DNA from: Castanea sativa
Taxonomy: Eukaryota > Streptophyta > Magnoliopsida > Fagales > Fagaceae
Direction: 5' to 3'
Assembly (NCBI RefSeq): GCF_040712315.1
Contig: NC_134018.1
Coordinates: 13,040,835-13,104,834 of the forward strand
DNA: 64,000 bases
A model generated the notes under the pieces. It worked only from the letters and a program-made list of their open reading frames with translations. It had not been told where the DNA came from and did no database searches. This document shows, in pieces, positions 24,066-26,980 of this stretch (the stretch's first letter is position 1; each line of letters starts with the position of its first letter). The translations under genes were made by a program, and so were the position numbers.

Positions 24066-24477
24066 AATGCCAAGAAACCCCTGAACTTTTAAGAAGTGGT
24101 CAAGGGACCCCTAAACTTTTATTTTAGTTAATTTACTCATTGAACCTTACTTAAGAGCCAAATTAAGACATCCGTTAAGTCTCTGTTTAAATTGACTAAC
24201 ATTGCCCATGTGAAACACACATGCAGCTTGCCAAACACCCAAATTGATGGACAGAGAGAGAGGCTGTGGCTCGTCGAAATTCATGGTCCCGCTATCACTG
24301 TTCTCTTCAACGGCCGATCTTGCCACCCTTGGCTATTGCCGCCGCTAGTGGTTTCTGACAACAACTAATAAATAGAGAGAGATTCAAACAAGCTCTTATA
24401 AATCCAAAGATTGAAAACCCATCAATCGATTAACTTGACTGTGCTATGTTTGACAAAGATAAACTTGTGGTTGTGGT

Positions 24478-25861
24478 TAGGGGTGGAAGTGGGTGGGTTT
24501 GAGTCATAAATGAGTTAGGTGTGTAATTACCCATTTATCCATTTATAATCCGTTTATATATAAATTAATTATCCATTACTAACCCAACCATTTAATTAGT
24601 AATCCACCCAATTAACCCATTATAAAATTTATATTTAGCAATTTAACAAGAAATTCTCTTGTGTAAAATTATCACACCCATACTATGCAAATCATTTTAA
24701 GAACATTGAAACTAATTCACCTTTCCCTCAAAACATAAGAACACTGAAACTAACCTACAGATTTTCTTTTCTCCCAACTTTTCTTGGCAACCAAACAGAA
24801 GATAAGTTAAAAAAAAATTAATTAAATCATGAGAATTGAGGTGTCATTCTCAGTCTTTATCTACCTTGACCAAAAATATGCAAAATTGCAAATCACATAG
24901 ATTTTTCAATCCAAAACAAACTTGAAATCTCTCTCACTCTCTCACATAAATGAAAATTCTGATGCTCTGTTCTCAACTTGCTCAGTTGCTTCCTCAGCTA
25001 ACTTAGCAGCAGAAGCAACCGAAACCACTTCGTTTTCATCGAACTTGGAATTCGCTTTTACATTTCCGTCACTGAAATTCAAAATTCCATCGGAAACTTG
25101 CTCAACAAAAGAAATCTTCGATTTCGAAATAGCTTCAGAGCCTTCATTTCCTTCAATCTCTTCCATAATTCCATTTAGTTTTCCACTTTTGCTCTTTAAC
25201 TTGGAGCTTCTCTCCACGAAAACTCTAGCATCAACTTCAGAATTCGATTCCACACACGACGACTCAGACACCTCTGCTTCACTGACTTTACCTTCATTTT
25301 CCTTCTTTCTGTAATACGATCTGGTAACTCTACAAACCGGTGCATTGGCCTTAACCACAGCTCCAGAGCCTTCAATTTCACCGAGATTTCTCTTCCGCAA
25401 GTTCGAACTCGGCTTGTTCTCCGATCCAACGGAGACTCTGCTCGAATCGCATGAAACTTCACTACTGAAGTAGGAGCAAAAGCTAGAGTCCACCGGAAAA
25501 GCAAAGAACCCAGAATTCTTACAAGGAAGAGTTAAATTCAGAGATTAATAGAGAATCGTAGAGATCTGTGATAGTTTGGTAGCTGAGAAAATGCCTAGAA
25601 AATGGAGGAGAAAACAGAGGAAGAGGCGGCTGTGATGTTTTATTGTTTGTTAGGGTTTTTGGCTTTTTGTTTTTTTAAGTATTAAATTTTAAATGGGTAA
25701 TTGGGTAGCCAGTGGTTTAACCATCAAAACCTATTTAATTGAATTATCTATTTGGGTCTTATCTATTTAACCCAAATATTTAATTGAGTTGGGTCATGAT
25801 TTATTCAAATTAAGTGGGTTTTAGATGGGTTTATGGGTTTGGATAAAAATTGCCACTCCTA
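24478..25861. mobile_element. hAT-like element carrying a captured gene piece
   Basis: Termini TAGGGGTGG ... CCACTCCTA are inverted (8 of 9) and are flanked by an 8-bp duplication GTTGTGGT / GTTGTGGC (24470-24477 and 25862-25869; 7 of 8). Subterminal regions on both sides are rich in ACCCA/TGGGT words, a usual hAT feature. There is no transposase. The centre (24940-25620) is a host gene fragment in antisense orientation with what looks like a 5' leader. This is the Pack-type arrangement, a non-autonomous transposon that has captured host DNA. Confidence 0.72.
24942..25520 (-). pseudogene. Captured N-terminal fragment of cyclin SDS (SOLO DANCERS)-like
   Basis: Open frame of about 190 codons, reading from about 25520 down to a TGA at 24942. 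It resembles the N-terminal, pre-cyclin-box region of the meiosis-specific cyclin SDS. Shared features are an EVSCDSSRV-type segment, CRVTRSYYRKKENEG, the block EVSESSCVESNSE (near identical to Arabidopsis SDS as I remember it) and ENEVVSVAS. SDS works with CDKs in meiotic recombination and pairing. The cyclin box is entirely missing, so no cyclin activity is possible. No ATG opens the frame; valine GTG at 25493 follows NSGFFAFP and a stop further upstream. The sequence to about 25650 (CCTCTTCCTCTG, CTACCAAACTATC) resembles a 5' leader. The frame has stayed open, suggesting a fairly recent capture. Confidence 0.68.
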
Positions 25862-26048
25862 GTTGTGGCGGATGCTTCTAGAGAGATCTTTATTTTTCCC
25901 GATAAATATGAAGTAAATAGAGGAATGCAAGATTAACAACATACTGAATATTGATGTTTGTCCTAGCACTAGCAATGGCAGGCCATTCCAGCAGTGGAAA
26001 AAGAAAAGGCAAAACCACTTGAACAAAAAAATCAAAATGTGTGGGTTT

Positions 26049-26980
26049 GATTTGGCTTGCGATTATTCCCACGGGCCACTCATCCATAATAAGGAGAAAC
26101 ATTCAAGTTCAACATCAAAAGATATCAATACGTGATGTGATTTAATTAGTAATGGGTTTTCGGTGGAAGCCAAGAATGGCGGTGGACAAGACCAGTGATG
26201 GCGGGACCACGAAGTCTAGCGAGCTACATCCTCTCTCTCCTCTCAACTGCAATCTTTTCTCTCGGTGTTTGGCAAGTTGCACGTGCGTGTGACGTGAGCA
26301 ATGTTAATTAGTTTAAACGGAAAGTTAACAAATGTCTCAATTTGGCCTTTAAGTAAAGTTTACGAAGTAAATTGGCCAAAATAAAAGTTCAGGGGGGGTT
26401 TTTTGGCTACTACTCTAAAGGTCAGGAGTCTCCTAGCATTTTTCCCAATATAAAACAATATAAATGGAGTGTACAAAATAGCCACTTATATATTTACATC
26501 TGTAATTTCATCGTTTGATAAATGCTTACCTTTTCATTAAATATTTGTTGCCATTTCACTATTACTAAATAAAAAATTATTATCATATACCTTAGAAGAT
26601 GACAAAACTAAAGTGATGTGGATAATAATAATAAATAATTAATGCAATTATTAAGGTTGATTACATATGTTCCTTATAAAAAACGTTGATCATATAAAAA
26701 ATGGCATGATATTTTCTTACTATTTTATATTAATAGAAGTGTTACGTTTACAATATTTTCACAATATTTTTATAACAAATCATAGGTGGTAAATTGTTAT
26801 TGATTTTAATTTGAATGCACAAATTTAATCTACTTTTTTTTTTCCACCTGTAATAACCAATAACAATATGTCATTTAAGATTTGTTGTCAAAATATTGTG
26901 GACAAATCATTTCTCTTATATTAATGTTATCCAAACACTTACGATAACTTCAAAAATAGAAAATATACTTTTACACATTT
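26049..26980. repeat. Tandem unit 1 of 3 (932 bp)
   Basis: Starts GATTTGGCTTGCGATTATTC. It contains interior sequence and the right arm of the TIR element (to about 26430), then flanking DNA with a MULE-type MITE (26735-26915). The next unit starts immediately after ACACATTT at 26980. Confidence 0.92.
26735..26915. mobile_element. MULE-type MITE (181 bp), triplicated with the array
   Basis: Inverted ends AGAAGTGTTACGTTTACAAT / ATTGTGGACAAATCATTTCT, flanked by the 10-base direct repeat TTATATTAAT (26725-26734 and 26916-26925). Mutator-type elements make 9-10 bp duplications. Copies at about 27690-27870 and 28622-28802 arose by the tandem triplication, not by new insertion. Confidence 0.7.

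What the first reader, a model, noticed from the sequence alone, without database searches (positions are those of the whole stretch)
24478..25861. hAT-like element that captured part of the meiotic cyclin SDS
Inverted TAGGGGTGG/CCACTCCTA ends and an 8-bp GTTGTGG(T/C) duplication delimit a 1.38-kb element. Its centre is an antisense open frame with the EVSESSCVESNS block, TRSYYRKKENEG and VSVAS segments of SDS N-termini, plus a leader-like upstream part. Captures by MULEs and Helitrons are common in plants; captures by hAT elements are reported less often. The frame has stayed open for about 190 codons, and transcripts from this copy could act on the parental SDS gene as antisense or siRNA.
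Basis: partly seen in the sequence, partly recalled or inferred. Interest (0 to 1): 0.78.

Follow-up and report, generated by a model that had tools for sequence, protein, structure and literature searches.

The report
Jumping gene carrying a meiosis-gene piece
A small hAT-type transposon in what looks like a chestnut genome carries a 619-base copy of the inside of a meiosis gene (SDS), in a place where its relatives carry a piece of another gene; it looks like a decaying example of a known process and not like a working gene.

Summary
Window 24478-25861 is a 1384-bp non-autonomous hAT-type element with imperfect terminal repeats and an 8-bp target duplication (7/8). Two paralogous empty sites read the duplicated GTTGTGGC once. 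Its core (24954-25572, minus strand) is 93% identical to the inside of exon 1 of the one SDS cyclin gene found in the same genome. It starts 98 nt after the SDS start codon, so the 'leader-like' part is not SDS: it is hAT arm, matched only by family copies.

New here: the lineage changed cargo. Three relatives carry pieces of about 425 bp of a dynamin gene (DRP1E: 5'UTR, exon 1, start of intron 1). A second SDS-bearing copy, on C3, still keeps 45 bp of DRP1E beside SDS. Recorded proteins of Castanea mollissima, Quercus suber and Quercus lobata look like the same captured lineage; both oak ones share the SDS-to-arm junction. The capture therefore probably predates the chestnut-oak split.

The open frame means little: no start codon at its head, changes as under neutrality, and 1 stop in the captured codons against 1.1 expected. 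Antisense or siRNA action on SDS is untested. Known kind: a Pack-hAT.

The parts
24470..24477 (.). left target-site duplicate GTTGTGGT
   Evidence: single copy GTTGTGGC at two paralogous empty sites
24478..24489 (+). left terminal inverted repeat (TAGGGGTGGAAG; family form TAGGGGTGGCAA)
   Evidence: 10 of 12 letters of the family form; 175 genome occurrences of the family's left-end 25-mer at up to 3 mismatches
24478..24953 (+). left hAT arm, shared with copies that have no SDS piece (79-89% over the stretches matched)
24954..24958 (.). AAATT microhomology at the arm/SDS junction; same junction, apart from a few base changes beside it, in the C3 copy L014
   Evidence: random breakpoints share 5 or more bases in 0.7% of draws
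24954..25572 (-). captured SDS exon-1 piece, 619 bp, equal to C3:24911308-24911926 (L013:2809-3427); 38 of 619 bases differ
24942..25544 (-).
   Evidence: neutral pattern of changes
25572..25573 (.). SDS/right-arm joint; 111 bp present in L014 (about 25 bp of filler, 45 bp of DRP1E, arm) are missing here
25573..25861 (+). right hAT arm, including the 'leader-like' part (25573-25720)
   Evidence: 25573-25720 gave 10 matches at 9 places in the genome, the window itself and 8 members of this element family
25850..25861 (-). right terminal inverted repeat (TTGCCACTCCTA)
   Evidence: 11 of 12 letters of the family form
25862..25869 (.). right target-site duplicate GTTGTGGC

Best explanation
It is a Pack-hAT: a non-autonomous hAT-type element that filled its middle with a host-gene piece and was then moved by a transposase made elsewhere. 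The steps are: (1) an old non-autonomous element of about 1.2 kb (class A); (2) its middle is replaced by about 425 bp of DRP1E (class B); (3) most of that is replaced by 619 bp of SDS exon 1, with 5 bp of shared sequence on one side and about 25 bp of filler on the other (C3 copy L014); (4) a copy that has lost the remaining DRP1E stretch sits in the window. The four structures are seen in copies in this genome; their order is inferred from them (for step 3, from the DRP1E remnant beside SDS). That each swap was made by template-switching repair of a break in the element is inferred from the junctions. The cargo makes no protein here that I can support and is decaying.
For: Ends, duplication and empty sites. 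Parental SDS gene found once in the genome, with Cyclin_N and Cyclin_C exons downstream; SDS identity. Second SDS-bearing copy L014 with a perfect ATCATTTT duplication. Class B copies L018, L020 and E9 match DRP1E across 5'UTR, exon 1 and intron 1 at 86-89%; the gene's exon-1 peptide matches dynamin-related protein 1A. L014 1085-1129 is DRP1E next to SDS. Old relatives of class A: L069 at 68-69% over about 1.2 kb, L070 at 71-73% over 0.9 kb, L071 in pieces. SDS/arm junction residues in oak proteins. The DRP1E piece contains intron sequence, so capture was from DNA. The window copy and L014 hold no inner copy of either 12-letter end at 9 of 12 or better.
Against: No autonomous partner was found: 30 fetched transposase loci (of 150 scored matches) showed no convincing match to the outermost bases except 14 bp in L051. 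The window copy's 111-bp loss begins exactly at the SDS edge, an uncomfortable coincidence for a plain later deletion. Only 4 of 11 copies examined show a duplication of 7/8 or better. Pfam gave no family for the two DRP1E gene pieces tried (47 and 91 residues). Grouping of element copies apart from genes on a protein tree is weakly supported (55/67). In class B copies L018 and L020, inner right-end-like words at 9 of 12 occur within the first 200 bp of the arm; I take these as chance in arm sequence, not cargo edges.
Confidence: 0.88

Rival explanations
1. Capture by end-bypass: two neighbouring elements flanked SDS (and before that DRP1E) and moved as one, after which the inner ends were lost (the model that Gisby and Catoni argue for Pack-TYPE elements).
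For: It is the model argued for plant Pack-TYPE elements, hAT included (section 9 of PMC8903248). The SDS-bearing copy L014 lies about 485 kb from the SDS gene on C3.
Against: Cargo meets the arms with a 5-bp overlap on one side and filler on the other, and the window copy and L014 hold no inner ends. The arms are in the same order as in copies without the cargo. In the 9.9 kb held around the SDS gene the element matches only the SDS piece itself.
Confidence: 0.12
2. The SDS-bearing elements act on SDS as antisense RNA or a source of small RNAs.
For: The window copy still shares 191 of 599 21-mers with SDS, longest run 65 nt.
Against: That is within the random-placement range (mean 155, 95% 104-208; longest run mean 65). 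L014 shares only 75 of 599. No RNA data could be examined.
Confidence: 0.05
3. The frame is a young gene under selection.
For: Proteins from related frames are recorded in Castanea mollissima, Quercus suber and Quercus lobata. dN/dS is 0.41 (window-parent), 0.42 (L014-parent) and 0.67 (window-L014). The 15 differences shared by both copies against the parent are 8 silent, 7 replacing.
Against: The values against the parent include the parent's own constrained branch, and the shared differences were not assigned to a branch. Window-only changes are 3 silent, 8 replacing, 1 stop, against 25/72/3.5% expected; L014-only changes are 8, 16, 1 against 29/68/3.4%. No ATG at the head of the frame. L014 has a stop, a 53-bp gap and a one-base gap. 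The two oak proteins start at different places and both carry foreign stretches.
Confidence: 0.03

Closest known systems
Maize Ds2 and Ds-l4 elements with gene fragments (PMC3260210; abstract in the listing and passages seen)
   Same: hAT superfamily, non-autonomous, pieces copied from genomic DNA, two shown with introns; the paper counts 2 Ds2 and 9 Ds-l4 such elements and calls the feature rare in hAT
   Different: In the passages seen, no lineage in which one cargo replaced another, and none shared between genera
Pack-hAT and other Pack-TYPE elements of rice and maize (PMC8903248; abstract, section 9 and passages seen)
   Same: 8-nt duplications, shared ends, internal gene pieces; in a maize Pack-PIF family a subgroup gained a second gene piece
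   Different: There the second piece was an additional insertion, here the second replaced most of the first; their model is fusion of neighbours, the junctions here look like repair
Grapevine Hatvine-6 (PMC2528002; passages seen)
   Same: hAT copies with shared ends and variable interiors that often match genes
   Different: Those elements share a transposase coding sequence; I saw none in the window copy
Animal Pack-TIRs, 208 of 370 in hAT (PMC8277862; start of abstract and passages seen)
   Same: Microhomology at junctions, same-chromosome bias, gap-filling model; a frog hAT took a 5'UTR piece and spread in three copies
   Different: Animal elements; multicopy cases are few there

Membership tests
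hAT superfamily (non-autonomous member) | 8-bp target-site duplication | tested here: met
   7/8 in the window, 8/8 in L014, 7/8 in L018 and E9; the other 7 of 11 copies examined score 0-5 at the ends located by the script; empty sites with one copy
hAT superfamily (non-autonomous member) | short terminal inverted repeats of hAT type | tested here: met
   TAGGGGTGGCAA / TTGCCACCCCTA, 10 and 11 of 12 in the window. Likeness to rice Dart/nDart and Ac ends is recalled; the one search for the nDart end word showed no occurrence in the 8 papers listed
hAT superfamily (non-autonomous member) | mobilised by a hAT transposase; autonomous partner with the same ends | tested here: inconclusive
   PF05699 is abundant (150 matches scored of 1480 candidates), but 30 fetched loci of about 3.2 kb gave no convincing end match except 14 bp in L051 (best 60 rows shown)
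Pack-TYPE (Pack-hAT) | host-gene fragment between the two ends, donor gene identifiable elsewhere in the genome | tested here: met
Pack-TYPE (Pack-hAT) | several copies, moved after capture | tested here: met
   window copy on C6 and L014 on C3, different duplications, same left junction
Pack-TYPE (Pack-hAT) | no own transposase | tested here: met
   arms plus SDS account for the whole length; frames judged by eye, only the SDS frame scanned with Pfam
Functional SDS gene | start codon and cyclin domains | tested here: not met
   piece begins 98 nt after the SDS ATG and ends inside exon 1; no cyclin domain found in the frame

The most novel reading that the evidence does not exclude
A hAT lineage that swaps cargo has carried a piece of a meiotic cyclin gene since before chestnuts and oaks parted, and its copies supply small or antisense RNAs that adjust SDS in meiocytes.
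Probability: 0.05. Interest if true: 0.75.

Novelty: new member of a known kind. Interest (0 to 1): 0.4.

Why it matters
Gene capture by hAT elements is on record but was called rare in maize (PMC3260210). Here one family shows a form without either cargo, a first cargo, a second cargo with a remnant of the first, and the second alone. That series, with sequence at each junction, lets the repair model be tested against the neighbour-fusion model. The oak relatives give a likely lower bound for how long such a passenger can ride.

Tried and rejected
Rejected: that the upstream part is a captured SDS leader (it matches only family copies). Rejected: that openness of the frame is evidence of function. 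Rejected: that E9 (C5, 9112 bp) is the autonomous element: its extra length holds reading frames that I recognise by eye as Copia-type, and a repeated 1.39-kb stretch. Left open: whether the class A middle is itself a very old capture. Besides four class A copies it matches five further places; the three fetched proved to be old copies of the same element (L069-L071), the two on C1 and C10 were not fetched. Led nowhere: Pfam on the frame (one match below cut-off); end matches in 30 transposase loci. I did not compare the 175 left ends with the transposase domains systematically. Paper searches for an earlier report: 2 papers; 23 listed, 0 occurrences of SOLO DANCERS in each; 10 of 382 listed; no title on such a capture. 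This is a thin negative.

Full report
What is there. The 1384-bp stretch 24478-25861 begins TAGGGGTGGAAG and ends TTGCCACTCCTA, and is flanked by GTTGTGGT and GTTGTGGC. Joining the flanks with one duplicate and searching the genome gave two unbroken matches, on C8 (86%) and C5 (85%); both read GTTGTGGC once at the joint. So this is an insertion with an 8-bp duplication into a sequence that exists elsewhere without it. The genome has 716 Mb in 13 contigs. Its SDS gene is 95% identical to a Castanea mollissima protein over my partial query, so I take the host to be a chestnut or a near relative; this is inference.

The captured piece. The element's middle, 24954-25572 on the minus strand, matches L013:2809-3427 (C3:24911308-24911926), which lies inside the first exon of a cyclin gene. 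SDS is a meiosis-specific cyclin; Arabidopsis mutants fail in homologue pairing, and SDS is needed to recruit DMC1 (passages of PMC3747318). The piece starts 98 nt after the ATG and stops inside the exon. A protein search of the genome found only the gene, the window copy and two parts of a second copy (4 matches).

The family. Eight further copies match long parts of both arms (compared); three on C4 match the left arm only and were not read. Class A (L019, L021, L022, L023) has a middle of its own; L069, L070 and L071 are older relatives. Class B (L018, L020, E9) has about 400-410 bases that align with 425 bp of DRP1E: 5'UTR, exon 1 and the start of intron 1. The gene is L057 on C11; its exon-1 peptide matches dynamin-related protein 1A in the PDB, though Pfam named nothing in the two short pieces tried. 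The label DRP1E rather than another DRP1 is recalled. Class C is the window copy and L014. L014 reads: left arm, SDS (with 53 bp missing inside), about 25 bp of filler, 45 bp of DRP1E 5'UTR at 93%, right arm. SDS therefore entered an element that already carried DRP1E and replaced most of it. The window copy lacks 111 bp between SDS and the right arm, including the DRP1E remnant; the break lies exactly at the SDS edge, with one shared base, which I cannot explain beyond calling it a deletion or a second repair product.

How the cargo was taken. At the left joint, class B reads ...GAAAATT and SDS reads ...CAAATT; both class C copies switch at the shared AAATT. Random pairs of breakpoints in the same two sequences share five or more bases in 0.7% of 200,000 draws; this is one junction of several. 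The other joint has filler. The window copy and L014 contain no inner end at 9 of 12 letters or better; L018 and L020 have such right-end-like words within the first 200 bp of their left arms only. The DRP1E piece includes intron sequence, so DNA was copied. This fits template-switching gap repair as described for Pack-TIRs (passages of PMC8277862) better than fusion of neighbouring elements (section 9 of PMC8903248), but the evidence is circumstantial.

Age. A search with the window frame found 10 proteins; I read eight of them (P0128 and P0130 were not read). P0121 from Castanea mollissima shares several of the window copy's own changes and groups with it (95/92), so the same insertion is probably in that species; it does not reach the junction. 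P0123 (Quercus suber), P0124 (Quercus lobata) and P0122 (unnamed contig) end ...RASEFSFP, where SDS genes read ...EFEFSEISGN or close to it. P0126 and P0129 read on into the left arm, and so, by eye in another frame, does P0125. P0127 looks like SDS itself. On a protein tree the 8 element rows and 6 gene rows part with one change, but with support of only 55/67. I read the first split of the clade that holds Castanea and Quercus as 64.5 Ma (67.0-62.1) in passages of PMC8921187, whose abstract also reports ancient introgression; the lower bound holds only without later exchange. The oak evidence is at protein level. The gene-to-element distances, 6.1% and 7.1%, would suit a slow tree rate, but I have no measured rate.

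Is it doing anything? The frame has no methionine at its head. Changes private to the window copy are 3 silent, 8 replacing and 1 stop; to L014, 8, 16 and 1; the neutral expectation is 25-29% silent. The 15 differences that both copies share against the parent are 8 silent and 7 replacing, not assigned to a branch. Pairwise dN/dS is 0.41, 0.42 and 0.67. Over the captured codons the window copy has one stop, near the SDS 5' edge; placing its 38 differences at random gives 1.1 stops on average and no stop in 32% of runs, or in 56% with half as many (insertions and deletions not simulated). L014 has a stop, a 53-bp gap and a one-base gap; 16 of its 25 private changes are C>T or G>A, against 6 of 12 in the window copy, not significantly different (p 0.49). 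The window copy shares 191 of 599 21-mers with SDS, L014 75, together 226; chance predicts 155 (104-208) for the window copy. Small-RNA targeting is thus possible and untested, with no sign of preservation.

Verdict. The layered captures and the oak relatives make it a good specimen, not a new kind.

Noticed in passing
window 24108-24239 and 26264-26395: Inverted arms of 132 nt, 80% complementary, surround the hAT element: it seems to sit inside another inverted-repeat element (further arms 24254-24322/26171-26239). Related sequence without the hAT lies on C8 and C5.
   Followed up: partly
L016/L017 (C5:44540463-44549574): A class B copy of 9112 bp whose DRP1E piece is interrupted by what looks by eye like a Copia-type retroelement, with a repeated stretch of about 1.39 kb, 93% alike.
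   Followed up: partly
L061 (C11:53609536-53609633): A short DRP1E intron-1-like stretch about 210 kb from the DRP1E gene; its likeness to class B extends further across the arm/DRP1E junction than that of the gene.
   Followed up: no
L022, about 1003-2004 of the element (C2): About 1 kb of foreign sequence in the right arm of a class A copy; origin not examined.
   Followed up: no
   Followed up: no
P0121, P0123, P0124: Frames from the captured element stand in public records as hypothetical or uncharacterised proteins of Castanea mollissima, Quercus suber and Quercus lobata.
   Followed up: partly
class A middle (L019 554-609 of the element): Class A copies L019, L021 and L022 repeat a stretch of about 52-56 bp of the family's left arm further inside.
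   Followed up: no
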